From Streptomyces olindensis (GTDB taxonomy: Bacteria > Actinomycetota > Actinomycetes > Streptomycetales > Streptomycetaceae): a stretch of 64,000 bases of DNA. The notes under the pieces were generated by a model. It did no database searches and was not told the origin of the DNA. It worked only from the letters and a program-made list of their open reading frames with translations. Positions 4,972 to 41,603 of this stretch are shown here, in pieces (positions within the stretch are counted from its first letter, which is position 1; the number at the start of each line of letters is the position of its first letter). The position numbers and the translations under genes are program-made. Where the stretch lies: contig JJOH01000004.1 in assembly GCA_000696115.1 (NCBI GenBank), forward strand, positions 1 to 64,000, written 5' to 3'.

Positions 4972-4986
4972 CTGACAGGGCGTCAG
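4972..4986. promoter_or_regulatory. Palindromic operator CTGACA-N3-CGTCAG (imperfect)
   Basis: CTGACAGGGCGTCAG differs by one base from the perfect CTGACG-N3-CGTCAG seen at 11968, 14943, 15003 and 41589. It lies 30 bases upstream of the thiolase-like gene start. Probably half of a paired operator in this divergent promoter. Confidence 0.7.
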
Positions 4987-4998
4987 ATTACCGTTAAT

Positions 4999-5013
4999 CT
5001 GACGGTCAGTCAG
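4999..5013. promoter_or_regulatory. Palindromic operator CTGACG-N3-AGTCAG (imperfect)
   Basis: CTGACGGTCAGTCAG is the second copy in the divergent promoter, 26 bases before the GTG of the CoA ligase, with one mismatch in the right arm. Its arms match the other five sites. Confidence 0.7.
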
Positions 5014-5039
5014 CTCCTCGGGTTCTCGGGAGGCTTGCG

Positions 5040-6647
5040 GTGCGAGCGGACACGGAGTGGGGAAGCGTTCCGGGCCTGGTGAGGGCGGCGGCCGAGCACT
5101 ATGCGGACGTCGAGGCGGTCGTCGAGGGCCGGACCCGGATCACGTACGCGGAACTGGGCGCGCGCGTGGACCGCGCGGCGGCGGCCTGCGTGGCGAACGG
5201 GCTCGGACCGGGCGACCGGGTCGCCGTCTGGGCGCCGAACACGCTCGACTGGATCGTCGCGGCCCTGGGAGCGGTGTCGGCGGGCGGCGTCCTGGTCCCG
5301 CTCAACACCCGCTTCAAGGGCACGGAGGCGGCGGACGTCCTGCGCCGCAGCGGGGCCCGGCTGCTGTTCGTGACGGGCACCTTCCTCGGCACCTCGTACG
5401 TGGCCTCGCTGCGCAGGGCGGCCGGGGAGGGCCCGGGCGACGGCCCGCTGCCCGGCCTGCCCGCCCTGGAGCGCGCGGTGGTCTTCGCCGAGGACGCCCC
5501 GGCCGCCTTCCTCACCTGGAAGGACTTCCTGGCGAGCGGGGAGGGGGTGGGCCCTGCGGAAGTCCGCCGCCGGGCCGCCGCGGTCGACGGCTCCCACCCC
5601 TCGGACATCATCTTCACCTCGGGCACGACGGGCCGGCCCAAGGGCGCGGTCATCACCCACGCGCAGACGCTGCGGGCCTACGACATCTGGGGCGACCTGG
5701 CGGGCCTGGCCCGGGGCGACCGCTACCTGATCGTGAACCCCTTCTTCCACACCTTCGGCTACAAGGCCGGGGTGATCGCCTGCCTCATGCGGGGCGCGAC
5801 GATGATCCCGCAGCCGGTGTTCAACGTGACCACGGTCCTCGCCAACATCGCCGCGGAACGCGTCTCCGTCCTGCCCGGCCCCCCGACCCTCCTGCAGTCC
5901 CTCCTCGACCACCCGGCCCGGGACGCCCACGACCTCTCCGCACTGCGCCTGGTGGTGACGGGCGCGGCGGTGGTGCCGCTGCGGCTCGTCGAGCGGCTGC
6001 GCGGGGAACTCGGCGTCGACACGGTCCTCACGGCCTACGGCCTCTCCGAGGCGGGCGGCGTCGTCACGATGTGCCGGCGCGGCGACGACCCGACGGTGAT
6101 CGCGTCGACGTCGGGCCGGGCGATCCCCGGCACCCGGGTGAGGGTCGTGGACGCCGAGGGCCGCTCTGTGGGCCCCGGCACGCCGGGCGAGGTCCTGGTC
6201 CGCGGCTTCAACGTCATGACCGGCTACTACGAGGACGAGGCCGCCACCGCCGAGGTCCTGACGCCGGACGGCTGGCTGCGCACGGGCGACGTCGGCGTCC
6301 TGGACCCCGCGGGCAACCTGCGGATCACCGACCGCCTCAAGGACATGTTCATCGTCGGCGGCTTCAACGCCTACCCCGCCGAGATAGAGCAGCTCCTCGG
6401 CCTCCACCCGGACGTGGCGGACGTGGCGGTGATCGGCGTACCGGACGCCCGGCTGGGGGAGGTGGGCCGGGCCTACGTCGTACGGCGGCCCGGGGCGCTG
6501 GTGACCGCCGACGACCTGATCGCCTGGTCCCGCCGCGAGATGGCGAACTACAAGGTGCCGCGCACGGTGGAGTTCGTGGCGGAACTCCCGAGGAACGCGA
6601 GCGGCAAGGTCGTGAAGGGGGCGCTGCGCGAGCGGGTCACCGGCTGA
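5040..6647 (+). CDS. Acyl-CoA ligase, FadD3-like (AMP-binding)
   Basis: 535-aa adenylate-forming enzyme that activates a carboxylic acid to its CoA ester. The P-loop-like motif TSGTTGRPKG lies near residues 194-203, then TAYGLSEAGG, the TGD hinge (GWLRTGDVGVLD), the DRLKDMFIVGGFN linker, and the catalytic Lys in NASGKVVKG near the C-terminus. The stretches NPFFHTFGYKAG and VLPGPPTLLQSLLDHPAR strongly recall mycobacterial FadD3, the CoA ligase for the last steroid ring fragment (HIP). The substrate is therefore probably a cyclic or steroid-like acid, but this is inference from memory of the family. Start GTG at 5040 with GGGAGG at 5028-5033. It is divergent from the thiolase operon and shares its operators. 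Confidence 0.9.
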   Translation: MRADTEWGSVPGLVRAAAEHYADVEAVVEGRTRITYAELGARVDRAAAACVANGLGPGDRVAVWAPNTLDWIVAALGAVSAGGVLVPLNTRFKGTEAADVLRRSGARLLFVTGTFLGTSYVASLRRAAGEGPGDGPLPGLPALERAVVFAEDAPAAFLTWKDFLASGEGVGPAEVRRRAAAVDGSHPSDIIFTSGTTGRPKGAVITHAQTLRAYDIWGDLAGLARGDRYLIVNPFFHTFGYKAGVIACLMRGATMIPQPVFNVTTVLANIAAERVSVLPGPPTLLQSLLDHPARDAHDLSALRLVVTGAAVVPLRLVERLRGELGVDTVLTAYGLSEAGGVVTMCRRGDDPTVIASTSGRAIPGTRVRVVDAEGRSVGPGTPGEVLVRGFNVMTGYYEDEAATAEVLTPDGWLRTGDVGVLDPAGNLRITDRLKDMFIVGGFNAYPAEIEQLLGLHPDVADVAVIGVPDARLGEVGRAYVVRRPGALVTADDLIAWSRREMANYKVPRTVEFVAELPRNASGKVVKGALRERVTG

Positions 6648-7560
6648 CCGGCAGGGCCGGGGTCCCGGTCACCGACATCATCAGCGAGTAGAGCGTGGTG
6701 TCGGCGGCGATGAACATGCGGTTGCGCCGGGCGCCGCCGAAGCGGATGTTGGCGACGGTGCCGGGGACCAGGACACGGCCGAGGAGCGTGCCGTCGGGGT
6801 CGTAGCAGTGCACACCGCCGTCCATGGCGGCGGCCCAGAGGCGGCCCGCGTCGTCGAAGCGGATGTTGTCGAAGTTCCCGTGCGCGCACGCGGCGAAGAC
6901 CTCGCCGCCGCCGAGCGTGCCGTCGTCGCGGACGTCGAAGACGCGGATGTGGTTGGCGAGGCTGTCGGACACGTACAGCCGGCGCTCGTCGGGCGAGAAG
7001 ACCAGCCCGTTGGGCCCCTGGAACCCGTCGGCGACCAACCGCACCTCACCGCTGCCCGGATCCACCCGGTACACGTTCCGCGCGCCGATCTCGCTCTCCC
7101 CGCGGTGCCCCTCGTAGTCCGTGGCGATCCCGAACTCGGGGTCGGAGAACCAGACCGACCCGTCCGACCGCACCACGGCGTCGTTCGGGCTGTTGAGCCG
7201 CTTGCCCTCGAACCGCTCGGCGATCACCGTGACCGAACCGTCGTGCTCCGTCCGCGTCACGCGCCGGTTCCCCTGCTCACAGGTGATGAGACGCCCCTGC
7301 CCGTCCAGGGTGTTGCCGTTCGGGAACCCGGCGGGCGAGCGGAAGACGCCCACGGCCCCCGTCGTCTCGTCCCAGCGCAGCAGCCGGTCGTTGGGGATGT
7401 CGCTCCACACGAGATACCGCCCGGCGGGCACGTACACGGGTCCCTCGGCCCACCGGCACCCCTCGAACAACGTCTCCAGCGCCGAGTCCCCGGCCTGGCA
7501 GCGGCCCGTGCGGAACCGTTCGTCGAGGGTCTCGTACGTCTGGGGTTGCTCACCGGGCAT
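6637..7560 (-). CDS. SMP-30/gluconolactonase/LRE family protein
   Basis: 307-aa six-bladed beta-propeller lactonase of the SMP-30 family. Diagnostic stretches are CRWAEGPVYVPAGRYLVWSD, LNSPNDAVVRSDGSVWFSDP, GPNGLVFSPDERRLYVSDS and a C-terminal NIRFGG; the Glu/Asn/Asp metal ligands of these motifs are present. The family opens sugar or other lactones using a divalent metal. The 3' end overlaps the 3' end of the CoA ligase by 11 bases (tail to tail). No CTGACG operator precedes it, so it need not belong to the same regulon, although lactone opening would suit a ring-degradation pathway. Confidence 0.88.
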   Translation of the reverse strand: MPGEQPQTYETLDERFRTGRCQAGDSALETLFEGCRWAEGPVYVPAGRYLVWSDIPNDRLLRWDETTGAVGVFRSPAGFPNGNTLDGQGRLITCEQGNRRVTRTEHDGSVTVIAERFEGKRLNSPNDAVVRSDGSVWFSDPEFGIATDYEGHRGESEIGARNVYRVDPGSGEVRLVADGFQGPNGLVFSPDERRLYVSDSLANHIRVFDVRDDGTLGGGEVFAACAHGNFDNIRFDDAGRLWAAAMDGGVHCYDPDGTLLGRVLVPGTVANIRFGGARRNRMFIAADTTLYSLMMSVTGTPALPVSR

Positions 7561-7669
7561 GCCGCCACCTTCGGGTCCGGGCCGATCGTGATCGTCGCGG
7601 ACCCACTATCGCGCGCCGGGGGCGTCGGCGCACGGGCCGAGACCCCCGGACCCGGGTATGGTGAGCGGT

Positions 7670-7936
7670 ATGGCAACGAAGAAGTACACCGTGACCCTCC
7701 CGGAGGAGCTCGCCGAGGAGATCCGGCAGGAGGTCGGGTCCGGCGGCTTCAGTGCCTATGTCACGCGGGCCATAGAGCGTCAGCGGGAGCAGGACCGGCT
7801 GGGTGAGCTGGTGGCATGGCTGGAGGAGGAGCACGGCCCCGTCACCGACGACGAGCTCGCGTCGGCCGAAGCCGAGCGCAGGGAGTTCGAGAGCCACTTC
7901 ACGGAGCAGGGTGAGCATCGCCGGAAGGCGAGCTGA
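7670..7936 (+). CDS. Antitoxin-like ribbon-helix-helix protein (VapB-type)
   Basis: 88-aa protein. Residues 1-45 (TKKYTVTLPEELAEEIRQEV) form a ribbon-helix-helix DNA-binding segment, and the acidic helical C-terminus is typical of a toxin-neutralising tail. It overlaps the downstream PIN gene by one base (TGATG), as is usual for type II toxin-antitoxin pairs. The ATG at 7670 is preferred; an in-frame ATG at 7658 would add four residues. Likely represses its own promoter. Function is inferred from fold and pairing. Confidence 0.82.
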   Translation: MATKKYTVTLPEELAEEIRQEVGSGGFSAYVTRAIERQREQDRLGELVAWLEEEHGPVTDDELASAEAERREFESHFTEQGEHRRKAS

Positions 7937-8331
7937 TGCTGCCGTCCTGCTATGTGCTGGATTGTGAGGCGCTCTCGCGGGCCGTGCTGGGGGACCGGGT
8001 GATGCTGGCGCGGCTCAAGGACGCCCATCGCTCGGGCATTCGCGTCGTGACCAGCTCCATGACGCTGATCGAGGCGTACCACGGTCGGGTACGGCGTGCC
8101 GCTTGGGCGTGGGCGATGTCGCGGGTCGTGGTCGAACCCGTGACGCGGGACGTCGCCGACGCCGCCGTCACCCTGCTCCAGGACACGGGCCTGCACGGTC
8201 ACAAGTACGCCATCGACGCGGCCCTGGCCGTCATCGCGGGCCGGCAGCCCGGAGGTGTCGTGCTCTTCACGTCCGACGAGGACGACATGGGAAAGCTCTG
8301 CGGGCCGGGCGTCAGGTCCGTTCCGCTGTAG
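7936..8331 (+). CDS. PIN-domain ribonuclease toxin (VapC-type)
   Basis: 131-aa PIN-fold protein. The acidic metal-binding residues of the fold are recognisable: Asp in YVLDCEALS, Glu in MTLIEAYHG, Asp in YAIDAALAVIA and the TSDEDDM cluster. VapC-type toxins are Mg-dependent RNases held inactive by their antitoxin. The gene is translationally coupled to the RHH gene at 7670. It sits between the SMP-30 gene and afsS, facing afsS, with a hairpin at 8359-8397 between the two convergent genes. Confidence 0.85.
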   Translation: MLPSCYVLDCEALSRAVLGDRVMLARLKDAHRSGIRVVTSSMTLIEAYHGRVRRAAWAWAMSRVVVEPVTRDVADAAVTLLQDTGLHGHKYAIDAALAVIAGRQPGGVVLFTSDEDDMGKLCGPGVRSVPL

Positions 8332-8358
8332 CGGAGCGCCCCCGCGTCCGGGCACACA

Positions 8359-8397
8359 TCGGCCGCGACGGCTCCCCCTCCGCGCCGCCGCGGCCGA
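8359..8397. terminator. Inverted repeat between vapC-like gene and afsS
   Basis: A 9-bp perfect stem (TCGGCCGCG and CGCGGCCGA) with a 21-base GC-rich loop lies between two convergent genes. Plausible bidirectional terminator; no T-run, as is usual in Streptomyces. Confidence 0.5.
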
Positions 8398-8415
8398 ACC
8401 CCGTGTGGAGGTGGC

Positions 8416-8601
8416 TTACTTCGTCGGCTTGAACGGCTCCGACGTGGCGTGCAGGTCCTTGGTCTCCAGCGGCTCGCCGGTGGCGTGCAGGTCCTCCGTC
8501 TTCGCGGTGCCCTCACCCGTGGCGTGCAGGTCCTCCGTGGAGGCCTCGCCGTCCGTCGTACCGGTCGCGTGCAGGTCCTGCGGCTTGAGCTCGTCGCCCA
8601 T
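8416..8601 (-). CDS. afsS: AfsS, small sigma-like repeat peptide
   Basis: 61-aa acidic peptide with four copies of the motif DLHAT(G/S) at residues 9-14, 24-29, 37-42 and 49-54, spaced 15, 13 and 12 residues, the later copies followed by E or EP. This repeat pattern is the signature of AfsS ('sigma-like protein'), a pleiotropic regulator of antibiotic production whose transcription is switched on by AfsR. The ATG at 8601 follows GGGGAG with a nine-base spacer. The gene lies directly downstream of afsR on the same strand, separated by 179 bases that contain AfsR-type direct repeats and a strong hairpin. A multi-core RiPP precursor was considered, but no modification enzyme is nearby. Confidence 0.9.
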   Translation of the reverse strand: MGDELKPQDLHATGTTDGEASTEDLHATGEGTAKTEDLHATGEPLETKDLHATSEPFKPTK

Positions 8602-8645
8602 GATCGTCAACTCCCCTTGGCATGGATCAAGCAGTGCGGTCGAAC

Positions 8646-8687
8646 GGGCCCGCCCGGTCACTCCCCCGAGTCCGACCGGACGGGCCC
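8646..8687 (-). terminator. Strong hairpin in the afsR-afsS intergenic region
   Basis: A 14-bp stem (8646-8659 pairing with 8674-8687, one G-U pair on the minus strand) encloses a 14-base loop. It lies downstream of the presumed AfsR box and upstream of the afsS start. It would sit in the afsS leader, or terminate afsR read-through, or both. Confidence 0.6.
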
Positions 8688-8749
8688 TGCGCGGCGACCC
8701 GTCTGCCCCCCGACGCGACGGATCGACTACGTCCAGCATGTCGGGCGGC

Positions 8750-8768
8750 GATAAACGAATGATGAACG
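8750..8768 (-). promoter_or_regulatory. Putative AfsR/PHO-type direct repeats in the afsS promoter
   Basis: On the minus strand CGTTCATC and CGTTTATC occur 11 bases apart (8761-8768 and 8750-8757), seven of eight bases matching. AfsR and PhoP are known to bind 11-base direct repeats of this type at the afsS -35 region. The site begins 12 bases after the afsR stop codon. Confidence 0.65.
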
Positions 8769-8780
8769 CCCCGAACGGCC

Positions 8781-11967: not shown

Positions 11968-11982
11968 CTGACGACCCGTCAG
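11968..11982. promoter_or_regulatory. Perfect palindromic operator CTGACG-N3-CGTCAG
   Basis: CTGACGACCCGTCAG, a perfect 6-3-6 palindrome ending 21 bases before the ATG at 12004. The same motif precedes the genes at 15045 and 41637. Probable TetR-type operator of the catabolic regulon. Confidence 0.8.
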
Positions 11983-12003: not shown

Positions 12004-13248
12004 ATGGACACCCACGACAGCACGTTTCCGCTGATCATCTCCGTGGACGACCACACCGTGGAGCCCGCGGACGTCTGGCAGGACCGGCTCCCGCGGCAGT
12101 ACCGGGGCGCCGGTCCGCGGATCGTCCGGGCGCCCGTGAAGGAGATGACCTTCCTCGGCGGGCGCTTCAGGCCCGTGATGGGTGAGCCCGGGGACGACGG
12201 TCCCGTCGGTGACTGGTGGGTCTACGAGGAGTTGCACAGGCCCCTGACCCGGCTCGACACCGCCGTCGGATACGACCGGGACGAGATCAGGCTGGAGGTC
12301 ATCACCTACGAGCAGATGCGGCCCGGCTCCTACGACGTCACCGCGCGCCTCGCCGACATGGACGTCAACCACGTCCAGTCCGCCCTGTGCTTCCCGACCT
12401 TCCCGCGCTTCTGCGGCCAGACCTTCACCGAGGCGAAGGACCACGAGCTGGGCCTGCTCTGCGTCCGCGCCTACAACGACTGGATGGTGGAGGAGTGGTG
12501 CGGCCCGAAGGCGCGGGGCCGGCTCATCCCGCTCACCCTCATCCCCCTGTGGGACGCCGAGCTGGCGGCGGCGGAGGTGCGGCGCAACGCCGCCCGCGGC
12601 GTCCGTGCCGTCGCCTTCTCCGAGATCCCGCCCCACCTCGGCCTGCCCTCCGTCCACACCGACGACTGGGACCCCTTCCTCGCCGCGTGCGACGAGACCG
12701 GCACGGTCGTCGCCATGCACATCGGCTCCTCCAGCCGTATGCCCTCCACCTCAGCCGACGCCCCGCCCGCCGTCGGCTCCACCATCACCTACGCCAACTG
12801 CTGCTTCTCGATGGTCGACTGGCTGATGAGCGGCAAGTTCGAGCGGTTCCCGAACCTCAAGGTCATGTACGCCGAGGGGCAGATCGGCTGGATCCCCTAC
12901 ATCCTGGAGCGCGCCGACGTGGTGTGGGAGGAGAACCGGGGCTGGGGCGGCGTCGCCGACAAGGTGCACCGGCCGCCGTCCGAGCTCTTCGCCGAGCACG
13001 TGTACGGCTGCTTCTTCGACGACGCCTTCGGGCTGCGCAACCTCGACTCCATAGGCGTCGGCAACGTCCTCTACGAGACCGACTACCCCCACTCCGACTC
13101 CACCTGGCCCAAGTCCCGCGAGGTCGGCGAGGCGCAGATGGGGCACCTGGAGCCGGACGTCGTGGAGCGCATCGTGCGCGGCAACGCCATCGACCTGCTG
13201 GGGCTCACGGCCGAGGGGCTGTGGCCCGGCGCCGGCGGTGCGCGGTGA
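12004..13248 (+). CDS. Amidohydrolase family protein (COG2159, decarboxylase/hydrolase type)
   Basis: 414-aa TIM-barrel metal-dependent hydrolase. The N-terminal ISVDDHTVEP replaces the HxH of classical members, as is common in the amidohydrolase_2 group. Further motifs are VQSALCFPTFPRFCGQ, GVRAVAFSEIPPHLGLPS, KVMYAEGQIGWIPYILERADVVW and the C-terminal YETDYPHSDSTWPKS carrying a metal-binding Asp and His. Such proteins act on cyclic acids as decarboxylases or hydrolases. The ATG at 12004 is preferred over GTG 11995; there is no ribosome site, so the transcript may be leaderless. It is first in an operon with the LLM gene (GTGA overlap) and the SDR, controlled by the operator at 11968. Confidence 0.9.
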   Translation: MDTHDSTFPLIISVDDHTVEPADVWQDRLPRQYRGAGPRIVRAPVKEMTFLGGRFRPVMGEPGDDGPVGDWWVYEELHRPLTRLDTAVGYDRDEIRLEVITYEQMRPGSYDVTARLADMDVNHVQSALCFPTFPRFCGQTFTEAKDHELGLLCVRAYNDWMVEEWCGPKARGRLIPLTLIPLWDAELAAAEVRRNAARGVRAVAFSEIPPHLGLPSVHTDDWDPFLAACDETGTVVAMHIGSSSRMPSTSADAPPAVGSTITYANCCFSMVDWLMSGKFERFPNLKVMYAEGQIGWIPYILERADVVWEENRGWGGVADKVHRPPSELFAEHVYGCFFDDAFGLRNLDSIGVGNVLYETDYPHSDSTWPKSREVGEAQMGHLEPDVVERIVRGNAIDLLGLTAEGLWPGAGGAR

Positions 13249-14165
13249 CGCTGCCGTACGGGATGCAGCTTCCCGTCCAGTCGCAGAGCACGATCTACGC
13301 CGAGTCCTGGGAGGCGGGCGCGGGCCCCGAGGACCTCCTCGGCATCGCCCGCGCCGCCGACCGGGCCGGCTTCGCCTACCTCGCGAGCTGCGACCACGTC
13401 GGCATACCGCGCCGGCTGGCCGCCGCGATGAGCACGGTCTGGTACGACCCCGTCGCCACGCTCTCCTTCCTCGCCGCCGCCACCTCCCGCGTCCGGCTGC
13501 TCAGCCACGTCGCGGTCGTCGGCCTGCGACACCCCCTGCTCACCGCCAAGCAGTACGCCACCCTCGACCACCTCAGCGGCGGCCGGCTGATCCTCGGGGT
13601 GGGCGCGGGGCACGTCCAGGAGGAGTTCGAGGCCCTGGGCGTGGACTTCCGGCAGCGCGGGCCCGTGCTCGACGAGTGCCTCGACGCCCTGCGCGCCGCC
13701 CTCGGACCCGACGAGTTCCCCGAGCACCACGGCAAGCTCTACGACTTCGAGGGCCTCGGGCAGCGGCCCCGCCCCGCACAGGAACGCGTACCCCTGTGGG
13801 TCGGCGGCTCCTCGCCCGCCGCCGTACGACGGGCCGCGCTCAAGGGCGACGGCTGGCTGCCGCAGGGGGATCCGAGGGAGCGGCTGCCCGGGCAGATCGC
13901 CCGGATCCGGGAGCTGCGCGAACGGGCGGAGGCGCGGGGCCCGTTCACCGTGGGCGCGATCACCGAGCCGCTGTACGTCGGCACGCCCGGCTGGGACGTG
14001 GGCCGACGGACCCTCACCGGCCGTCCGCGGCAGCTCGCCGAGTCCCTGCGGGCGTACCGGGCGATGGGCGTGCACCAGATCCAGGTGCGCTTCCGCAGCC
14101 GGAGCCGTACCGAACTCACCGACCAGATCGCGGCGTTCGGCGCCGAGGTCGCCCCCGAGCTGTGA
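13245..14165 (+). CDS. LLM-class flavin/F420-dependent oxidoreductase
   Basis: 306-aa luciferase-like monooxygenase fold. It shows DRAGFAYLASCDHVGIP, LSFLAAATSRVRLLSHVAVVGLRHPLLTAKQYATLDHLSGGRLILGVGAGHVQEEFEALG (in pieces) and PLWVGGSSPAAVRRAA, all typical of the subgroup that uses F420 or FMN. The GTG at 13245 overlaps the amidohydrolase stop by four bases (GTGA), which fixes the start. Together with the SDR eleven bases downstream it forms a redox module of the second catabolic block. Whether the cofactor is F420 or FMN cannot be told by eye, but fbiC in the same window shows that F420 is made. Confidence 0.9.
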   Translation: MTLPYGMQLPVQSQSTIYAESWEAGAGPEDLLGIARAADRAGFAYLASCDHVGIPRRLAAAMSTVWYDPVATLSFLAAATSRVRLLSHVAVVGLRHPLLTAKQYATLDHLSGGRLILGVGAGHVQEEFEALGVDFRQRGPVLDECLDALRAALGPDEFPEHHGKLYDFEGLGQRPRPAQERVPLWVGGSSPAAVRRAALKGDGWLPQGDPRERLPGQIARIRELRERAEARGPFTVGAITEPLYVGTPGWDVGRRTLTGRPRQLAESLRAYRAMGVHQIQVRFRSRSRTELTDQIAAFGAEVAPEL

Positions 14166-14175
14166 GGAGAGCGCC

Positions 14176-14946
14176 ATGGGCAAGCTCGACGGACGGGTCG
14201 TCATCGTCACCGGCGCCGCCCGCGGCCAGGGCGAGCAGGAGGCCCGGCTGTTCACGGCCGAGGGCGCCCGGGTGGTCGTCGCCGACGTCCTCGACGAGCA
14301 GGGCGAGGCCCTCGCCAAGGAGATCGGCGCGACGTACGTCCATCTCGACGTCGGCCGGGAGGACGACTGGCAGGCCGCCGTCGCCGCGGCCAAGGATGCC
14401 CACGGCCATGTCGACGGGCTCGTCAACAACGCCGGCATCCTGCGCTTCAACTCCCTCCTCGACACACCCCTCGACGAGTTCATGCGGGTCGTCCAGGTCA
14501 ACCAGGTGGGCTGCTTCCTGGGCATCCGCGCGGTCGCCCCGGAGATGGCCGACGGGGGCACGATCGTCAACACGGCCTCCTACACGGGCCTGACCGGGAT
14601 GGCCGCCGTGGGTTCCTACGCGGCCACCAAGCACGCCGTCATCGGCCTGACCCGGGTCGCCGCCCTGGAGCTGGCCGGCCGGGGGATCCGCGTCAACGCC
14701 GTCTGCCCCGGGGCCATCGACACGGCGATGTCCAACCCGGCGCGGCTCGACCCGGACGCCGACCTCCAGGAGACCGCGAAGGGCCTCGACCGGCTGTACC
14801 GCAAGCTCGTGCCGCTGGGGCGGGTCGGTCAGCCGGAGGAGGTGGCGAGGCTCGCGCTGTTCCTCACCTCGGAGGACTCGTCGTACATCACGGGGCAGCC
14901 GTTCGTGATCGACGGGGGGTGGCTGGCGGGCGTCAGCATCATCTGA
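14176..14946 (+). CDS. SDR-family oxidoreductase (3-alpha/20-beta-hydroxysteroid dehydrogenase type)
   Basis: 256-aa classical short-chain dehydrogenase. The cofactor motif is TGAARGQG (about residues 12-19), with NNAG at about 85-88, the Ser in NTASYTG, the catalytic YAATK (about 153-157), and the C-terminal SSYITGQPFVIDGGW. The TGAARGxG and VVVADVLDEQGE pattern is common in NAD-dependent 3-alpha/20-beta-hydroxysteroid dehydrogenase-like SDRs of actinobacteria. ATG at 14176 with GAGGAG seven bases upstream. The CTGACG palindrome at 14943-14957 overlaps its stop codon. Substrate unknown, though a cyclic alcohol fits the neighbouring enzymes. Confidence 0.92.
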   Translation: MGKLDGRVVIVTGAARGQGEQEARLFTAEGARVVVADVLDEQGEALAKEIGATYVHLDVGREDDWQAAVAAAKDAHGHVDGLVNNAGILRFNSLLDTPLDEFMRVVQVNQVGCFLGIRAVAPEMADGGTIVNTASYTGLTGMAAVGSYAATKHAVIGLTRVAALELAGRGIRVNAVCPGAIDTAMSNPARLDPDADLQETAKGLDRLYRKLVPLGRVGQPEEVARLALFLTSEDSSYITGQPFVIDGGWLAGVSII

Positions 14947-14957
14947 CGTCTCGTCAG
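14943..14957. promoter_or_regulatory. Perfect palindromic operator CTGACG-N3-CGTCAG (upstream copy)
   Basis: CTGACGTCTCGTCAG overlaps the SDR stop codon and lies 60 bases before the next perfect copy at 15003. The pair suggests cooperative control of the promoter for the gene at 15045. Confidence 0.75.
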
Positions 14958-15002: not shown

Positions 15003-15017
15003 CTGACGAACCGTCAG
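15003..15017. promoter_or_regulatory. Perfect palindromic operator CTGACG-N3-CGTCAG
   Basis: CTGACGAACCGTCAG ends 27 bases before the TTG start at 15045, the same distance range as at the other regulon promoters. Confidence 0.8.
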
Positions 15018-15044: not shown

Positions 15045-16163
15045 TTGGAATTCGGCATCTTCGTACAGGGATACGTCGGCAAACGGGCCGAGACCGACCC
15101 GCTCGCCGAGCACAAGGCGCTGATGGAGGAGACCGAGTACGTCATCCAGGCGGACAAGTCGGGCTTCAAGTACGCCTGGGCCTCCGAGCACCACTTCCTG
15201 GACGAGTACTCGCACCTCTCCGCCAACGACGTCTTCCTCGGCTATCTGGCGCACGCCACCGAACGGATCCACCTCGGCTCGGGGATCTTCAACCCGCTGG
15301 CCCAGGTCAACCACCCCGTGAAGGTCGCCGAGAAGGTCGCCATGCTCGACCACCTCAGCGGCAACCGCTTCGAGTTCGGCAGCGGGCGGGGCGCCGGCTC
15401 GCACGAGATCCTCGGGTTCCTGCCGGGCATCACCGACATGAACCACACCAAGGAGATCTGGGAAGAGACCATCGCCGAGTTCCCCAGGATGTGGCTCCAG
15501 GACGAGTACGAGGGCTTCCAGGGCAAGCACTGGTCGCTGCCGCCGCGGAAGGTCCTGCCGAAGCCGTACGGTCCGGCGCACCCGGCCATGTGGTACGCGG
15601 CCGGGTCCCCGCCGTCCTACGCGATGGCGGCGCGCAAGGGGCTCGGGGTGCTGGGCTTCAGCGTGCAGAAGGTCTCCGACATGGAGTGGGTGCTCGAGCA
15701 GTACAAGACGGCGATCGTGGACGCGGAGCCGGTCGGGGCGTTCGTCAACGACAACGTGATGGTGACGACGACGGCGATCTGCGCCCCGACGCACGAGGAG
15801 GCCGTGCGGATCGCCGCCAACGGCGGGCTGCACTACCTGCCCTCGCTGGTGTTCCGCTACCACGACACGTTCCCGCGGCCCGAGGGGTTCCCGGTGTGGC
15901 CGGAGACGCTGCCGGAGTACACGGAGGAGCTCGTCGAGGCGCTGATCGAGGAGGAGTTGCTCATCTGCGGGGATCCGGACGAGGTGCTCAGGCAGTGCAA
16001 GCGGTGGGAGCAGGCCGGGGCGGACCAGTTGAGCTTCGGGTTGCCGGTGGGGGTGCCGAAGGAGGAGACCCTGCAGACGATCCGGCTGGTCGGGGAGCAC
16101 GTGATTCCCAAGATCGATACGGATCCTGTGCATCGGACTTCGCGGTTCCGGCGGGGTGGTTGA
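15045..16163 (+). CDS. LLM-class flavin-dependent monooxygenase (luciferase-like)
   Basis: 372-aa luciferase-like protein: MEFGIFVQGYVGKRAE at the start, FKYAWASEHHFLDEYSHLSAN, then NHPVKVAEKVAMLDHLSGNR, FEFGSGRGAGSHEI and a late WYAAGSPPSYAMAARKGLGVLG. The EHHF motif and the length resemble the alkanal monooxygenase alpha-type group, which needs reduced flavin and O2. The start is a rare TTG at 15045, because an in-frame TGA lies nine bases upstream (15036-15038). Two CTGACG operators precede it. It may perform the oxygenation step of the pathway, with the first LLM protein in a different redox step. Confidence 0.9.
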   Translation: MEFGIFVQGYVGKRAETDPLAEHKALMEETEYVIQADKSGFKYAWASEHHFLDEYSHLSANDVFLGYLAHATERIHLGSGIFNPLAQVNHPVKVAEKVAMLDHLSGNRFEFGSGRGAGSHEILGFLPGITDMNHTKEIWEETIAEFPRMWLQDEYEGFQGKHWSLPPRKVLPKPYGPAHPAMWYAAGSPPSYAMAARKGLGVLGFSVQKVSDMEWVLEQYKTAIVDAEPVGAFVNDNVMVTTTAICAPTHEEAVRIAANGGLHYLPSLVFRYHDTFPRPEGFPVWPETLPEYTEELVEALIEEELLICGDPDEVLRQCKRWEQAGADQLSFGLPVGVPKEETLQTIRLVGEHVIPKIDTDPVHRTSRFRRGG

Positions 16164-34648: not shown

Positions 34649-34731
34649 ACGCCCTCCGCTCTCGCACGTGCCGCATGAGGAGACCACGTGAGCGGCTTGG
34701 CCGTCACCCCGGGGACGGGATGATCAGGGGC

Positions 34732-35901: not shown

Positions 35902-35905
35902 CGCA

Positions 35906-36237
35906 GTGAGTGCTCAGAGCGACGGCCCGTACGGGCCGCTGATCCCCATGCCTCAGCTGACGCCGGACGCGCTGCGTGATGCCGTCGCACGGATCGCCCC
36001 CAGCCGGCTTCCCACGCTCACGCAGCACCTCTTCGAGGCCACGACCAATGCCCAGCAGACCCAGAGCCTGGCACCCCTGCGCGCCTTCGCCCACTCCTGG
36101 GGTGTGTTCGTCGCGCTCGGGCCGAGCGCCTGCGTGAGCTGGAGCGCATCGTGGACGCGGGCGAACAGGACTCGACCGAGGCCATCGCGGAGATCCACGC
36201 CATCCGGGAGACCGCGGAGGCAGAGGCCGGGCTGTGA
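35906..36237 (+). pseudogene. DUF6247-type gene, frameshifted
   Basis: The frame from GTG 35906 encodes GPLIPMPQLTPDALRDAVAR...APLRAFAHSWGVFVAL as in DUF6247 proteins, then runs into nonsense until 36328. From 36119 another frame (offset by one) gives the expected C-terminus RAERLRELERIVDAGEQD... ending in EAEAGL at a TGA (36235-36237). A small deletion near 36115-36120 would account for the shift and for a few missing residues. In related strains this gene follows the helix-turn-helix gene whose remnant is at 35340-35901, so both partners appear to be decaying together. Confidence 0.75.
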
Positions 36238-36397
36238 CGGACTGGTCCTGGGGCCGCCACCCGTGTGCCGGCTGACAGCAGCCCACTCAGAACCACTCAC
36301 CCCACACCCACACTGTTCCGCCCCCTGAAGCCCCCGTCCCCCTTCGAATACAGTGCAGAGCTGTCGGACGTATGGACGGTTCCCTGGGGAGGACTAG

Positions 36398-37516
36398 GTG
36401 GGTGCGACTGCCGGTGCCGTCTGGGGCCGTACGGAGCAGCAGGACTTTCGGAGCCGGGTGCGCGGGACGTTGCTCGGCGTGGCCGTCGGGGACGCGCTGG
36501 GGGCGCCCGTCGACGGGATGACCATCGCGGGGATCCGGGAGGCGCACGGGGCGGAGGGCCTCGTGGACCTGGCCCCCGCCTACGGCAGACGCGGTGCCGT
36601 CACCCACCTCACGCAGCTCACCCTGTTCTCCGTGGACGGGCTGATACGGGCCCAGGTGCGGCGGGACACCGGCGCCTGGCATCCGCCGACCGATCTGCAC
36701 CGCGCGTACCTGCGCTGGGCCGCCACCCAGCGGGACTGGGGGCCCGACGAGCGCCGCAAGGACGACGGGTGGCTCGCGCGGGAGGAGTGGCTGTACGCGC
36801 GACGGGATCCCAGTCGCGCGCTGCTGCTGGGACTCGGCGACGACACCATGGGGACCCCGGACGCGCCCAAGAACCCCGGCGAGGCCGGGCCCGAGGCGGC
36901 TGCCCGGTCCGCGCCGTTCGGGCTGCTCGTGGGGTGGGAGCCGCAGCTCGTCGTCCAGCTCGCGGTGGAGTGCGCGGCGCAGACCCACGGGCATCCCACG
37001 GCCTGCCTCGCGGCGGGCGCGTACGCCGTGATCGTGCACGCCCTGGCCCTCGGCGAGAGCCTCGACGGTGCCGTGCAGCGGGCCTTCGCCCTGCTCGCCG
37101 CCCGGCCCGGGCACCAGCCCGTGTCCGACGCGCTGCAGCACGCGCTGGGCGCCGTACGGCAGGGCATGCCCGGGCCCGAGCGCGTCGCCGAGCTGAGCGG
37201 GGCGGGGACGGCGGAGGGGCTCGTCGGCGCCGCCGTGTACTGCGCGCTGGTCGCCGCCGACGTCCGGCACGGGCTGTGCCTCGCCGTCAACCACGACGGG
37301 CCCTCCGCCGCGACCGGCGCGCTGACCGGCGGCCTGCTCGGCGCCCTGCACGGCGAGACGGCCCTGCCGCCGGCCTGGCTGGCCGAGCTGGAGGGCCGTC
37401 CCACGATCCTGGAACTGGCCGACGACTTCGCCATGGAGATGACCCAGGGCCCGGCCCTGCACGGCCCGGCGGGCTCCTCCCCGGGCTGGCTGGCACGGTA
37501 CCCGCGGGGCGCCTAG
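36398..37516 (+). CDS. ADP-ribosylglycohydrolase family protein
   Basis: 372-aa all-helical DraG-type hydrolase. Motifs: RGTLLGVAVGDALGAPVDGM near residues 22-41, the region GAVTHLTQLTLFSVDGL where the usual TDDT motif is changed to THLTQLT, and the C-terminal NHDGPSAATGALTGGLLGALHG, which carries metal-binding Asp and Thr. The family removes ADP-ribose from proteins or other acceptors. The altered first metal motif is unusual and activity may be modified. GTG 36398 has GGGGAGG upstream. Confidence 0.85.
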   Translation: MGATAGAVWGRTEQQDFRSRVRGTLLGVAVGDALGAPVDGMTIAGIREAHGAEGLVDLAPAYGRRGAVTHLTQLTLFSVDGLIRAQVRRDTGAWHPPTDLHRAYLRWAATQRDWGPDERRKDDGWLAREEWLYARRDPSRALLLGLGDDTMGTPDAPKNPGEAGPEAAARSAPFGLLVGWEPQLVVQLAVECAAQTHGHPTACLAAGAYAVIVHALALGESLDGAVQRAFALLAARPGHQPVSDALQHALGAVRQGMPGPERVAELSGAGTAEGLVGAAVYCALVAADVRHGLCLAVNHDGPSAATGALTGGLLGALHGETALPPAWLAELEGRPTILELADDFAMEMTQGPALHGPAGSSPGWLARYPRGA

Positions 37517-37694
37517 GCGACCTCTTCCTGCCCGGGCCGCTCCCAGTGCTCATCGGTCTGGCATGGTCGCGTCACCGTGCGGCGGTCGCCCCGTCACCTT
37601 CGGTCCTGAGGATCTGCACGGCCCGATCCCGGGATCACCCCCCGGCGCTGCCCCACCGGGTCTCGTCCGTTCATCCCCCCTTCGTGGAGGCACT

Positions 37695-39002
37695 GTGCGC
37701 AACCTGCGCGGGACACAGACGGCCGCGATCCTCGCGGCCCTGACGGCCGTGGCGGTCCTGCCCACCTCGGCCCAGGCGTACGACCCCGGGCTCCCGGGAC
37801 TGACCGCCACCGCCGAGACCCCGGCCCTGTACGGCGACGACGCGGGCGGCAACGCCGACGCCGACGACCCGGCGATCTGGCGCAACGCCGCCGACCCCGA
37901 CGCCAGCCTGGTGATCGCCACCGCCAAGGAGGGCGGCCTGCGCGTGTACGACCTGGCGGGCAGGGAGGTGCAGTCGATCCCGGCGCCGCCCGCGCCCACT
38001 CCCGACGACAAGCCGGGCCGCTTCAACAACGTGGACCTGATCTCCGGGTTCCCGCTGCCGACCGGCCGCGCCGATGTCGCCGTCGTCACCGACCGGGGCC
38101 GCGACCACCTGCGCATCTACCGCATCACCCCGGGCGCCGCGCAGCCGCTGACGGACATCACCGACCCGAACGCCCCGCTGGTCTTCTCCAGGACCCCGGA
38201 CGAGGTCAACGACCAGGCCACGCCCTACGGCCTGGCCACCTGGACGGACAAGGCGACGGGCCGCTCCTACGCGGTGGTCAGTCAGCGCAGCCGCACCCGC
38301 CTCGCCCTGCTGGAGCTGAGGACGACCGCCACCGGAGCCGTCACCTACCGGCAGGTGCGCACCTACGACCTGCCCGCCTCCTTCACCCTCCCGAACGGCA
38401 CCTCCTGGACCCCGTGCGCCGACCCCGGCGACCTCCCGCAGGTCGAGGGCATGGTCGTGGACCCGGTGAACAAGGTGCTCTACGCCGGTCAGGAGGACGT
38501 CGGCATCTGGCGGCTGCCCGCCGACCTCGGGGGCAGGCCGAAGCTGATCGACAAGGTGCGGGAGTACGGCGTCCCGGCGACGTACGACGAGGCGACCGAG
38601 GAGTGCGTCGCGGGCGCCGACCCGGGCTACGGCGGTACGCACCTGTCGGCCGACGTCGAGGGCCTCACCCTCCTCGACGAGGGCTCCGGCGACGGCTACC
38701 TGCTCGCCTCCAGCCAGGGCGACGACACCTTCGCCGCGTACGACCGCGAGGTGTCCGACGACAACGAGTACGAGAGCGGCTTCCGGGTCGCCGCCGGCAC
38801 CGTCGACGGCTCCGAGGAGTGCGACGGCGCCGCCGTGCTGAACGCCCCGCTCGGCTCCCGGTACCCGAACGGCCTGCTCGTCGTCCAGGACGGCCACAAC
38901 ACCCCGGACGAGACGGACGCGGACGGGGAGGTCCGCGACAACACGAACTTCAAGTTCGTCGACCTGGGCAAGGTCACCGGGGCCCTGGAGGAGGAGGACT
39001 GA
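37695..39002 (+). CDS. Secreted beta-propeller phytase
   Basis: 435-aa protein. The signal peptide runs to about residue 29 (NLRGTQTAAILAALTAVAV ending in AQA). The mature part is a six-bladed propeller of the 3-phytase family: DDAGGNADADDPAIWRNAADP, GLRVYDLAGREVQSI, GRFNNVDLISGF, VVTDRGRDHLRIYRI, ADVEGLTLLDEGSGDGYLLASSQGDDTFA (in pieces) and LLVVQDGHNTPDE. The many Asp/Glu side chains bind Ca and phytate. It releases phosphate from inositol phosphates outside the cell. GTG 37695 has GGAGG four bases upstream. A terminator follows at 39009-39042. Confidence 0.92.
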   Translation: MRNLRGTQTAAILAALTAVAVLPTSAQAYDPGLPGLTATAETPALYGDDAGGNADADDPAIWRNAADPDASLVIATAKEGGLRVYDLAGREVQSIPAPPAPTPDDKPGRFNNVDLISGFPLPTGRADVAVVTDRGRDHLRIYRITPGAAQPLTDITDPNAPLVFSRTPDEVNDQATPYGLATWTDKATGRSYAVVSQRSRTRLALLELRTTATGAVTYRQVRTYDLPASFTLPNGTSWTPCADPGDLPQVEGMVVDPVNKVLYAGQEDVGIWRLPADLGGRPKLIDKVREYGVPATYDEATEECVAGADPGYGGTHLSADVEGLTLLDEGSGDGYLLASSQGDDTFAAYDREVSDDNEYESGFRVAAGTVDGSEECDGAAVLNAPLGSRYPNGLLVVQDGHNTPDETDADGEVRDNTNFKFVDLGKVTGALEEED

Positions 39003-39008
39003 GCCGTG

Positions 39009-39042
39009 CGTACGCCTCCGCCCCGAGTGGCGGAGGCGTACG
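39009..39042. terminator. Phytase/symporter convergent terminator
   Basis: A perfect 14-bp stem (39009-39022 and 39029-39042) with a six-base loop lies just after the phytase stop and 32 bases from the 3' end of the convergent symporter gene. It can serve both. Confidence 0.85.
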
Positions 39043-39073
39043 TCCCTCTCTACCGGCGCACAGGGAGAGGCGG

Positions 39074-40645
39074 TCAGTCCTTCACCGGTGTGCGGACCGC
39101 GTCCTCGACGCCGCCCGCCGGTGTCGGGATCGCGGCCGCCGCGGCCCCGTCCCCGTCCGTGTTGATCTTCTCGATGATGGCGAGCCGCTCCGGGGTGTCC
39201 TCAGGCTTCATGAAGCCGACCAGGATGTAGAGGACCAGCGATACCGCCAGCGGGATCGACACCTGGTACTGGAGCGGGACGCCGCCCTCGACGTTCCAGT
39301 TGATCGGGTAGTTCACCAGCCAGAAGGCGAGCAGGCCCATCGACCAGCTGACGAGGGCCGCCGTGGGGCCGGAGCGGCGGAAGGGCCGCAGCAGGCCGAG
39401 CATCATCGGGATGGCCATCGGGCCCATCAGGCCGGCCACCCACTTGATGACGACCGTGATGATGTCCTTGAAGGTGGGGGAGTTGACCTGTGTCGCCGCC
39501 GCCATGGACAGGCCGAGGAAGACGACCGTCGCGATGCGGGCGACCCGAAGTCCCTGCCCCTCGCTCCAGGCCCGCGCCCGGCGCCACACCACGGGCGCGC
39601 AGTCCCGGGTGAACACCGCCGCGATGGCGTTGGCGTCGGAGGAGCACATGGCCATGGTGTGCGAGAAGAAGCCGACGATGACCAGGCCCAACAGACCGTG
39701 GGGAAGGAGCTGTTCGGTCATCAGGGCGTAGGAGTCGGAGCCGTCCGGCTTCTGCGACTCGACCAGCAGCGGCGACATCCACATGGGGAAGAACAGCACC
39801 AGCGGCCAGACCAGCCAGAGGATCGCCGACAGCCGGGCCGACCGCTCGGCCTCCTTGGCGTTGGGCGTGGCCATGTAGCGCTGGGCCTGGTTGAGCATGC
39901 CGCCGTTGTACTCGAAGAGCTTGATGAAGAGGAAGGCGAGCAGGAAGACCGTGCCGTACGGGCCGACCAGCGGTTTCTCATGGCCCTGGAGTTCGGGCGA
40001 GTCCCAGACGCCGAAGAAGCCGCCGTGGTCGTCGAGCCGGACGAAGACCGCGACGAACATGGCGATGCCGGCCAGCAACTGGATGACGAACTGGCCGAGT
40101 TCGGTCAGCGCGTCCGCCCAGAGGCCGCCGATCGTGCAGTAGATCGCCGTGATGCCGCCGGTGATGAGGATGCCCTGGTTCAGGGAGATGCCCGTGAAGA
40201 CGGACAGCAGCGTGGCGATCGCCGCCCACTTCGCGCCCACGTCCACGATCTTCAGCAGCATGCCCGACCAGGCCAGCGCCTGCTGCGTCTTGAGGTCGTA
40301 ACGGTTCTTCAGGTACTCCAGCGGGGAGGCCACATGGAGCCGTGAACGCAGCCGGTTGATGCGCGGGGCGAACAGCTTCGAGCCGATGGCGATGCCGAGG
40401 GCGATGGGGAAGGACCAGGTGACGAAGGACGTGACGCCATAGGTGTAGGCGATGCCCGCGTACCCGGTGAACATCACCGCGCTGTAGCCCGACATGTGGT
40501 GCGAGATGCCGGAGAGCCACCACGGCATCTTGCCGCCGGCGGTGAAGAAGTCGCTGACGTTGTCCACGCGTTTGTGCGACCAGACGCCGATCGCGACCAT
40601 CACGGCGAAATAGCCGATGAGCACGGCCCAGTCGAGACCGTTCAT
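39074..40645 (-). CDS. Sodium:solute symporter family protein
   Basis: 523-aa polytopic protein with about 13 helices of the SSS family: LDWAVLIGYFAVMVAIGVWSH, GKMPWWLSGISHHMSGYSAVMFTGYAGIAY (in pieces), RINRLRSRLHVASPLEYLKNRY, and WAGLMGPMAIPMML late. SSS proteins import sugars, amino acids or carboxylates with Na+. ATG 40645 follows GGGAGG. Its upstream region carries the palindrome TGACC-N4-GGTCA at 40708-40721, a probable operator. It lies downstream of the SDR on the same strand, but 126 bases separate them. Confidence 0.9.
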   Translation of the reverse strand: MNGLDWAVLIGYFAVMVAIGVWSHKRVDNVSDFFTAGGKMPWWLSGISHHMSGYSAVMFTGYAGIAYTYGVTSFVTWSFPIALGIAIGSKLFAPRINRLRSRLHVASPLEYLKNRYDLKTQQALAWSGMLLKIVDVGAKWAAIATLLSVFTGISLNQGILITGGITAIYCTIGGLWADALTELGQFVIQLLAGIAMFVAVFVRLDDHGGFFGVWDSPELQGHEKPLVGPYGTVFLLAFLFIKLFEYNGGMLNQAQRYMATPNAKEAERSARLSAILWLVWPLVLFFPMWMSPLLVESQKPDGSDSYALMTEQLLPHGLLGLVIVGFFSHTMAMCSSDANAIAAVFTRDCAPVVWRRARAWSEGQGLRVARIATVVFLGLSMAAATQVNSPTFKDIITVVIKWVAGLMGPMAIPMMLGLLRPFRRSGPTAALVSWSMGLLAFWLVNYPINWNVEGGVPLQYQVSIPLAVSLVLYILVGFMKPEDTPERLAIIEKINTDGDGAAAAAIPTPAGGVEDAVRTPVKD

Positions 40646-40707
40646 GTGCGCCCTCCCAGGGATCAGCCCGGCGCTCATCGTGGGCGCTACCGCGTGAACA
40701 CGACAAG

Positions 40708-40721
40708 TGACCGTATGGTCA
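40708..40721. promoter_or_regulatory. Palindrome TGACC-N4-GGTCA upstream of symporter
   Basis: TGACCGTATGGTCA, a 5-4-5 inverted repeat 62 bases upstream of the symporter ATG. Different from the CTGACG operator. Plausible operator; regulator unknown. Confidence 0.5.
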
Positions 40722-40771
40722 AAGGGAGGTAAAAATGTTCGGTGCGCTGGCCTTGGTTCATCCATATGAAC

Positions 40772-41557
40772 TCAGCGCATCAGCTCCCCGGCGTTGACCA
40801 GCAACGACTGCCCGGTGATCGCCCGAGCCCGGTCCGACGCCAGGAACACCGCAGCGTCGGCCACGTCCGAGTCCGCGGCCAGTTCGGGTAGGGCCACCCG
40901 CTCGGTCAGCCGCTCCAGCACGGCCGCCTCGGGCACGCCCTCCGCCTGCGCGGTGAGCCGGACGAACGCCTTCACCGGCGGCCCCCACATCCAGCCGGGC
41001 AGTACGGTGTTGACCCGGATCCGGTGCGGCCCGAGCTCCCGGGCCAGCGAGTACATCGCACTCGTCAGCGCCCCCTTCGACGCCGCGTACGCCGCCTGCC
41101 GCACCTGCGACGGGGCCGCCACCGCCGACTGCGTCCCGATGAACACGACCGATCCGCCGCCCTGTTTCAGCGACGGCAGACAGGCCCGGGTCATCCGCAG
41201 GGTGCCCAGCAGGTTCACGTCCAGGACGGCGCGCCAGGACTCGAAGTCCGCGTCCTCCAGCCCACCGAAGTGGCCGTCGAGCGCGGCCACGTGCACGACG
41301 GCGTCGATCCGCCCGAACCGCTCCACCGCCAGCCCGGCCAGCGCCTCGCACTGCGCCTCGTCGGAGATGTCGGTGGCCCGGTGCGCCGTGCGCGCCCCGT
41401 CGGGGTCCAGCTCCTCGGCGGTCTTCGCCAGGTTCGCCGCCGTGCGGGCGCCGAGCACCACGCGCCCGCCGTCCCGCACCACGGCCGCCGCGACCTGCCG
41501 TCCGAGCCCGGCCCCGACCCCCGACACCACGACGGTCTTCCCCGCGAGCAGCGACAT
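40772..41557 (-). CDS. SDR-family oxidoreductase
   Basis: 261-aa short-chain dehydrogenase: cofactor motif VSGVGAGLGRQVA (TGxxxGxG variant with S for T), central HVAALDGHFGG in place of the usual NNAG, Ser in VFIGTQSAVA, and the YAASKGAL catalytic Tyr/Lys. Such SDRs occur in steroid-like and cyclic acid degradation. It is divergent from the EthD-like gene, and a perfect CTGACG operator sits 31 bases upstream of this start, which ties it to the catabolic regulon at 3-19 kb. Confidence 0.9.
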   Translation of the reverse strand: MSLLAGKTVVVSGVGAGLGRQVAAAVVRDGGRVVLGARTAANLAKTAEELDPDGARTAHRATDISDEAQCEALAGLAVERFGRIDAVVHVAALDGHFGGLEDADFESWRAVLDVNLLGTLRMTRACLPSLKQGGGSVVFIGTQSAVAAPSQVRQAAYAASKGALTSAMYSLARELGPHRIRVNTVLPGWMWGPPVKAFVRLTAQAEGVPEAAVLERLTERVALPELAADSDVADAAVFLASDRARAITGQSLLVNAGELMR

Positions 41558-41588
41558 GGCAGGACCTCCCGGACCTCTGGCGCATTTT

Positions 41589-41603
41589 CTGACGGAGCGT
41601 CAG
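41589..41603. promoter_or_regulatory. Perfect palindromic operator CTGACG-N3-CGTCAG (distant member)
   Basis: CTGACGGAGCGTCAG lies between the divergent SDR (31 bases) and EthD-like gene (33 bases). It is the only copy seen outside 4.9-15.1 kb. Confidence 0.8.

What the first reader, a model, noticed from the sequence alone, without database searches (positions are those of the whole stretch)
4972..41603. Undescribed regulon defined by CTGACG-N3-CGTCAG palindromes around afsR/afsS
Six 15-bp palindromes (4972, 4999, 11968, 14943, 15003, 41589; four perfect, two with one mismatch) occur only near catabolic genes, and five lie 21-33 bases before a start codon. They connect the thiolase/DUF35/hydratase operon, the FadD3-like ligase, the amidohydrolase-LLM-SDR operon, the second LLM gene and the distant divergent SDR/EthD-like pair. 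The 6-3-6 form suits a TetR-type dimer, but no TetR gene lies in the window. This is the best candidate for a new catabolic system here.
Basis: partly seen in the sequence, partly recalled or inferred. Interest (0 to 1): 0.8.

Follow-up and report, generated by a model that had tools for sequence, protein, structure and literature searches.

The report
Lipid-ring catabolic regulon beside afsR
In Streptomyces and in distantly related actinobacteria, a 15-base DNA palindrome sits in front of genes predicted to break down ring-shaped lipid acids, and it is likely the binding site of a conserved repressor encoded just outside this window whose targets were unknown, so that orphan regulator can now be tested directly.

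Summary
The six palindromes are real and far above chance genome-wide: 129 sites with at most one mismatch against 24 for the reversed control. They are part of a larger regulon. Fourteen sites lie on both sides of the break between contig C6 and the window's contig, which falls inside one kinase-like gene. About 2 kb left of the window, by synteny, is a TetR gene (PF19352) found at E<=1e-71 in 197 of 199 Streptomyces; it is likely SCO4421, a spore-expressed regulator of unclear function (PMC3878966, passages). TetR and motif co-occur across Actinomycetota. In 38 non-Streptomyces TetR loci there are 63 sites against 1 for the control, and 9 loci have a site 28-100 bp before TetR. Six Streptomyces with few sites lack the catabolic genes around TetR. 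Site-adjacent genes are enriched in amidohydrolase-fold proteins, whose home-like members keep a dinuclear-metal residue pattern, and in acyl-CoA dehydrogenases; others resemble the FadD3 ligase and a lipid-transfer-type thiolase.

The parts
4972..4986 (.). operator, one mismatch; first of a pair 27 bp apart in the thiolase/fadD divergent promoter
   Evidence: a 27-bp pair is found 13 times in 20 other Streptomyces regions
4999..5013 (.). operator, one mismatch; second of the pair
3782..4942 (-). thiolase, lipid-transfer type (PRK07855 subfamily; best PDB hit 6ok1)
3367..3780 (-). DUF35 / ChsH2 C-terminal-type protein
2597..3370 (-). enoyl-CoA hydratase family
1596..2489 (-). alpha/beta hydrolase, end of the thiolase operon
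   Evidence: gene order conserved in L115
5040..6647 (+). acyl-CoA ligase, FadD3 family
   Evidence: 785.7 bits, cut-off 657
11968..11982 (.). operator, perfect, 21 bp before the amidohydrolase-fold gene
12004..13248 (+). PF04909 protein with the residue pattern of dinuclear-metal monooxygenases (predicted)
13221..14165 (+). LLM-class oxidoreductase, TIGR03619 F420-dependent family
14176..14946 (+). short-chain dehydrogenase
14943..14957 (.). operator, perfect, overlapping the stop of the SDR gene
15003..15017 (.). operator, perfect, 27 bp before TTG 15045
15045..16163 (+). second LLM-class gene
40772..41557 (-). short-chain dehydrogenase
41589..41603 (.). operator, perfect, between SDR and divergent ORF
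41637..42476 (+). divergent ORF, 279 aa, no Pfam family found
3..1409 (+). C-terminal (beta-propeller) part of the afsK-like gene split between contigs C6 and C4; the TetR lies beyond it on C6:284834-285478 (outside the window)

Best explanation
The palindromes are likely the operators of one catabolic regulon, predicted to be repressed by the TetR-family protein encoded about 2 kb beyond the left end of the window (the likely SCO4421 orthologue), whose target genes are predicted to degrade polycyclic, isoprenoid-like carboxylic acids as CoA thioesters. Shown by sequence: the operator AT-CTGACG-NNN-CGTCAG-AT, its promoter position, its clustering around this TetR gene, its co-occurrence with the TetR across Actinomycetota, and its absence together with the catabolic genes around the TetR in some Streptomyces. 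Inferred: a TetR dimer binds each palindrome close to the start codons, blocks the often divergent operons and, at least in distant relatives, its own gene, and lets go when it binds a pathway intermediate, probably an acyl-CoA. Predicted pathway: FadD3-like or ATP-grasp ligases make the CoA ester; amidohydrolase-fold dinuclear monooxygenases, LLM/F420 enzymes and SDRs oxidise and reduce it; acyl-CoA dehydrogenases and hydratases carry out beta-oxidation; thiolase/DUF35 pairs cleave C-C bonds.
For: Enrichment over a reversed (also palindromic) control: 129 vs 24 and 46 vs 5 in the genome. In the home cluster 13 of 14 sites have a called gene start 14-33 bp away. TetR in the middle of the cluster; contig break inside one gene. 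Sites in 18 of 20 other Streptomyces TetR regions. Phylum sample: 11 non-Streptomyces genomes with the TetR average 5.5 perfect sites, 276 without it 0.31, rank test p 2e-11. 38 non-Streptomyces TetR loci: 32 perfect and 63 <=1-mismatch sites, control 0 and 1; 9 loci with a site 28-100 bp before the TetR match. TetR is itself among the site-adjacent genes: TetR_C_38 in 9 of 85, control 2 of 85. Same logo in home (14), other Streptomyces (65) and distant (87) sites; recognition-helix residues SPATFYQYF nearly invariant. Six of six Streptomyces TetR regions with few genome sites lack fadD, thiolases and the acyl-CoA dehydrogenase. Enzymes.
Against: No binding or expression data. In Streptomyces the TetR start carries only a two-mismatch site, half of it coding, in a generally conserved stretch. 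2 of 199 Streptomyces (G139, G178) have 9 and 10 perfect sites but no close TetR hit, though both are fragmented assemblies; 4 of 199 have no perfect site, and G116, G118, G136 and G198 among them keep the TetR. G247 has the TetR and no site; G356 and G297 have 7 and 5 sites and no TetR. 6 of 38 distant TetR loci show no site. 5 of 18 perfect home sites are inside genes. No Rieske partner gene lies in the core cluster. The steroid/diterpenoid substrate class rests on homology alone, and the ligase's closest solved relative is a feruloyl-CoA synthetase. An AraC-type regulator also lies in the C6 part.
Confidence: 0.8

Rival explanations
1. The operators are real but are read by another regulator (for example the AraC/DJ-1-type protein in the C6 part of the cluster, or an unlinked TetR), and the TetR beside the kinase is only a neighbour.
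For: No perfect site at the Streptomyces tetR promoter; an AraC-type gene at L017:9213-10250; two Streptomyces with sites and no close TetR hit.
Against: In distant groups with different neighbours the shared regulator near the sites is this TetR, often with a site in its own promoter, and the presence of TetR predicts the number of sites. I did not test the AraC gene for co-occurrence.
Confidence: 0.08
2. TetR and operators are right, but the pathway is not for polycyclic isoprenoids: the regulon serves another class such as aromatic, branched or alicyclic acids.
For: Ligase closest in the PDB to feruloyl-CoA synthetase; acyl-CoA dehydrogenases have weak hits to pimeloyl- and cyclohexanecarboxyl-CoA dehydrogenases, below cut-off; DitZ's substrate was not found in the library.
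Against: Thiolase closest to 6ok1 lipid-transfer protein, acyl-CoA dehydrogenase closest to Tcur3483 and 4x28, amidohydrolase-fold protein close to PtmU3; ligase above the FadD3 cut-off.
Confidence: 0.35
3. The palindromes are not operators but chance copies or hairpins such as terminators.
For: 5 of 18 perfect home sites are inside genes, so part of the genome-wide count is background.
Against: Excess over a control that is also a palindrome, position before start codons, A/T flanks on both sides of the palindrome in the logo, joint absence with the local genes.
Confidence: 0.02

Closest known systems
KstR2 regulon (cholesterol catabolism, mycobacteria and rhodococci)
   Same: TetR-type repressor, palindromic operator in divergent promoters at similar distances from start codons (22-82 bp there), CoA-ester catabolic targets (PMC3068626, passages)
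   Different: Operator AnCAAGnnCTTGnT there, CTGACG-N3-CGTCAG here; KstR and KstR2 are not among the 13 PDB sequence hits of this TetR at E<=0.001 (that they are in the PDB is recalled)
EthR (Mycobacterium tuberculosis TetR repressor)
   Same: Nearest solved fold to the TetR model and among the best sequence hits
   Different: About 19% identity; different operator and target (recalled)
SCO4421 of S. coelicolor
   Same: TetR gene close to afsK (PMC3878966, passages); the TetR here lies two genes from an afsK-like gene
   Different: Only its expression and lack of mutant phenotype are reported in the passages seen; no operator or targets. The S. coelicolor sequence itself was not compared
Amidohydrolase-related dinuclear oxygenases (AibH2, PtmU3, SfbO)
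   Same: PF04909 fold and the pattern D-x-H, H, E, D-x2-H-x-D (against PMC7782822, passages); PtmU3 acts on CoA-ligated substrates (same passages)
   Different: No Rieske gene in the core cluster; activity untested

Membership tests
TetR family of regulators | TetR_N helix-turn-helix domain with all-helical ligand domain | tested here: met
   PF00440 27.1 bits (cut-off 24) and PF19352 244 bits; all-helical model, pLDDT 92.4, nearest fold EthR
TetR family of regulators | binds a palindromic operator as a dimer | not testable with these tools
   co-occurrence only
KstR/KstR2 regulons | KstR2 operator AnCAAGnnCTTGnT | tested here: not met
   logo here is AT-CTGACG-NNN-CGTCAG-AT against PMC3068626
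KstR/KstR2 regulons | regulator orthologous to KstR or KstR2 | tested here: inconclusive
   no KstR name among the 13 PDB hits; no direct alignment made
Amidohydrolase-related dinuclear oxygenase (ARO) | six metal ligands plus the extra acidic residue described as conserved only in binuclear members | tested here: met
   D15, H17, H239, E291, D360, H363, D365 in 14 of 14 sequences kept (14 of 28 offered were dropped by a BLAST filter), matched by order and spacing to AibH2, not by structural superposition
Amidohydrolase-related dinuclear oxygenase (ARO) | Rieske-type reductase gene close by | tested here: not met
   14 Rieske places in the genome, none in the core cluster
Amidohydrolase-related dinuclear oxygenase (ARO) | O2-dependent hydroxylation | not testable with these tools
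   needs an enzyme assay
Lipid-transfer thiolase / DUF35 retro-aldolase pair | Ltp2-type thiolase next to a ChsH2-type DUF35 protein | tested here: met
   PRK07855 572.5 bits (cut-off 469) and 6ok1 E 7e-97; adjacent DUF35
Lipid-transfer thiolase / DUF35 retro-aldolase pair | catalytic residues of the aldolase | not tested
   no residue-level comparison was made

The most novel reading that the evidence does not exclude
An ancient, phylum-wide actinobacterial regulon for oxygen-dependent breakdown of polycyclic isoprenoid CoA esters, opened by CoA-linked dinuclear-metal monooxygenases, which in Streptomyces is built around the AfsK-KbpA-AfsR antibiotic switch and is shut in spores by a WhiA-dependent TetR, so that lipid-ring turnover, sporulation and antibiotic control meet at one locus.
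Probability: 0.25. Interest if true: 0.82.

Novelty: new member of a known kind. Interest (0 to 1): 0.64.

Why it matters
A TetR conserved in nearly every sampled Streptomyces, next to an afsK-like kinase gene, corresponds by synteny to SCO4421, which has a deletion strain, a spore-active promoter and no known function (PMC3878966, passages). This work gives it a precise operator, a target list and a likely pathway class, so its role becomes directly testable with strains that exist. The same operator and TetR recur in Acidimicrobiia and Actinomadura, so results from a laboratory Streptomyces should carry over to poorly studied groups. It also nominates annotated 'amidohydrolases' as likely CoA-ester monooxygenases.

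Tried and rejected
Motif strings in print: six strings, no paper; a loose CTGACG + TetR + Streptomyces search gave 136 papers, of which 20 were listed and none looked relevant by title or abstract start. Guessed tags SCO4434-SCO4442 led to unrelated papers (listing); SCO4421 came next. A TetR with a near-perfect site in its own promoter in the home genome: I compared by eye the 125 TetR_N places (150 of 380 candidates had been scored) with the sites listed (lists capped) and saw none; the one in a site cluster is on C6. PDB search of the LLM protein gave nothing specific. DitZ in papers: no occurrence in the 20 listed. TetR-less genomes with several sites (G356, G297, G258, G275, G405): 15 of their 24 perfect sites were opened; 6 inside genes, 9 intergenic; two of three G356 sites have identical flanks, as in a repeat. 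Rejected: membership in the KstR2 regulon (operator differs); chance or hairpins.
Full report
Observation. All six palindromes are present as described. The perfect form occurs 18 times in the 9.37-Mb genome against 2 for the reversed pattern, the <=1-mismatch form 129 against 24, and CTGAC-N5-GTCAG 46 against 5. Five sites lie 21-33 bp from a start codon; 14943 overlaps a stop codon. Genome-wide not every perfect copy is a promoter site: 13 of 18 are intergenic and 5 are inside genes, two of those in one repeated stretch.

The window is half of the picture. Eight further sites (<=1 mismatch) lie at C6:250226-283080, all intergenic, next to a second amidohydrolase/acyl-CoA dehydrogenase operon, an SDR/acyl-CoA dehydrogenase/ADH operon with a divergent cyclase, a flavin reductase, a hydratase and ATP-grasp CoA ligase pair, an operon with a DUF35 gene, and a divergent thiolase / acyl-CoA dehydrogenase pair. 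C6 ends and the window's contig C4 begins inside the same gene: the C6 end matches residues 1-318 and window 3-1409 matches residues 352-792 of the intact gene in a complete relative. I call it afsK-like from its kinase-type N-terminus (own reading), its beta-propeller half and its place. The order in that relative is fadD, two sites, thiolase-DUF35-hydratase-hydrolase, kinase, glyoxalase-fold protein, TetR, F420-type reductase and acyl-CoA dehydrogenase, two sites, second thiolase (L115). So 14 of 129 sites fall in 79 kb where 1.1 are expected; the borders were set by the sites, so the tests in relatives carry more weight. Further likely members are a MaoC/DUF35 operon on C8, an SDR on C12 and an LLM gene on C18.

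The regulator in Streptomyces. The TetR gene (C6:284834-285478) carries PF00440 and PF19352 and is found at E<=1e-71 in 197 of 199 sampled Streptomyces. Its start codon sits in a two-mismatch form of the operator in 30 of 30 loci and 20 of 20. One search found 105 TetR starts by a start pattern among 114 loci offered (some genomes more than once, some loci not Streptomyces); 102 have CTGACGNCATGACAG. Half of that site is coding and its surroundings are conserved too, so this is weak alone. 18 of 20 TetR regions hold at least one site with <=1 mismatch, and the fadD/thiolase promoter has one or two in 16 of 20.

Co-occurrence beyond Streptomyces. Of 296 genomes sampled across the phylum, 9 are Streptomyces; 11 others have the TetR (E<1e-30, a cut set by the gap in the list) and average 5.5 perfect sites; 276 lack it and average 0.31. 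A scan of named genomes kept the best 80 of 587 relatives: Acidimicrobiia and other actinobacterial MAGs including Microthrix and Ilumatobacteraceae, Aquihabitans, Actinomadura and Streptomyces, and one MAG labelled Acidobacteria. The 38 that are not Streptomyces (474,057 bases) hold 32 perfect and 63 <=1-mismatch sites; the reversed control gives 0 and 1. 32 of 38 have a site, and 9 have one 28-100 bp before the TetR match. The logo is the same at home (14 sites), in other Streptomyces (65) and in distant loci (87): AT-CTGACG-NNN-CGTCAG-AT.

Joint absence. Six Streptomyces TetR regions were fetched because their genomes had 0-2 perfect sites. In all six the TetR, kinase and glyoxalase-fold genes are there, while fadD, both thiolases and the neighbouring acyl-CoA dehydrogenase are missing from the 20-kb region (the rest of those genomes was not searched). 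This fits sites that serve those genes, and suggests the TetR has a further duty.

Against this reading. G139 and G178 have 9 and 10 perfect sites and no close TetR hit, though both assemblies are fragmented. G356 and G297 have 7 and 5 sites without the TetR; 15 of 24 sites in five such genomes were opened, 6 inside genes and 9 intergenic. G247 has the TetR and no perfect site. 6 of 38 distant TetR loci have no site.

What the genes do. Of 85 complete genes starting within 180 bp of a site in distant loci, 13 match PF04909, 11 acyl-CoA dehydrogenase, 7 CoA-transferase III, 7 isochorismatase and 9 TetR_C_38. Of 85 control operon-first genes drawn at random from 287, acyl-CoA dehydrogenase and TetR_C_38 have 2 each, and the other three are not among the 25 families listed, so at most 2 each. 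SDRs are not enriched (2 against 7). The window's PF04909 protein is closest to DitZ of Rhodococcus and to PtmU3 by sequence and fold. Of 28 candidates offered, 14 aligned with the home proteins, and 14 of these 14 keep the residue pattern that binds two metals in AibH2; one of them (L165) has no site next to it. PtmU3 is described as a diterpenoid hydroxylase that accepts CoA-ligated substrates (PMC7782822, passages). PMC10811679 (part 1 of 3 read) names the class amidohydrolase-related dinuclear oxygenases. The thiolase is of lipid-transfer type with an adjacent DUF35 (that 6ok1 is the Ltp2 aldolase is recalled), the ligase is above the FadD3 cut-off but its closest solved relative is a feruloyl-CoA synthetase, and one acyl-CoA dehydrogenase is closest to Tcur3483 and 4x28 (recalled as steroid side-chain enzymes). 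These are parts of polycyclic side-chain and ring catabolism; the exact substrate is not known.

Mechanism. In the home cluster 13 of 14 sites have a called gene start 14-33 bp away, often one on each side, and pairs 27 bp apart occur twice at home and 13 times in 20 other Streptomyces regions. This fits a repressor that blocks promoters, as KstR2 does with a different operator (PMC3068626, passages). The TetR model is a confident all-helical fold nearest EthR. Release by an acyl-CoA intermediate is inference.

Known work. SCO4421 is the TetR gene close to afsK in S. coelicolor; its promoter was active in spores and not in vegetative hyphae, its array signal fell in a whiA mutant, and its deletion gave no phenotype (PMC3878966, passages). 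That SCO4421 is this gene rests on synteny. Searches for motif strings, for SCO4421 and neighbours and for combined terms (listings, plus passages of PMC6988585 on KbpA beside AfsK) found no description of this regulon in the open library, which lacks most subscription papers.

Noticed in passing
G000 contigs C11 and C19 (sites C11:187537 and C19:110444); C28 and C92: The same stretches, with the same motif copy or TetR places at matching spacing, appear on two contigs each, as from large repeats, terminal repeats or assembly duplication.
   Followed up: no
L278-L283 (six other Streptomyces): TetR, kinase and glyoxalase-fold genes are kept where the nearby catabolic genes and sites are missing, so the TetR may have a second role.
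   Followed up: partly
window 39074-40645 (-): A sodium:solute symporter gene follows the SDR gene 40772-41557 on the same strand and could be the importer of the regulon's substrate.
   Followed up: no
L202:5184-5744, L204:4816-5370, L208:5163-5738, L164:9240-9788: A conserved gene of about 185 aa, an isochorismatase-type hydrolase where scanned (L164), follows a site next to the TetR in Acidimicrobiia.
   Followed up: partly
L017:9213-10250 (-): An AraC/DJ-1-type regulator gene lies in the C6 part of the cluster with no near-perfect site next to it.
   Followed up: no
window 4972/4999, C6:250226/250253 and other Streptomyces fadD/thiolase promoters: Operators come in pairs with exactly 27 bp spacing, which may reflect cooperative binding.
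   Followed up: partly
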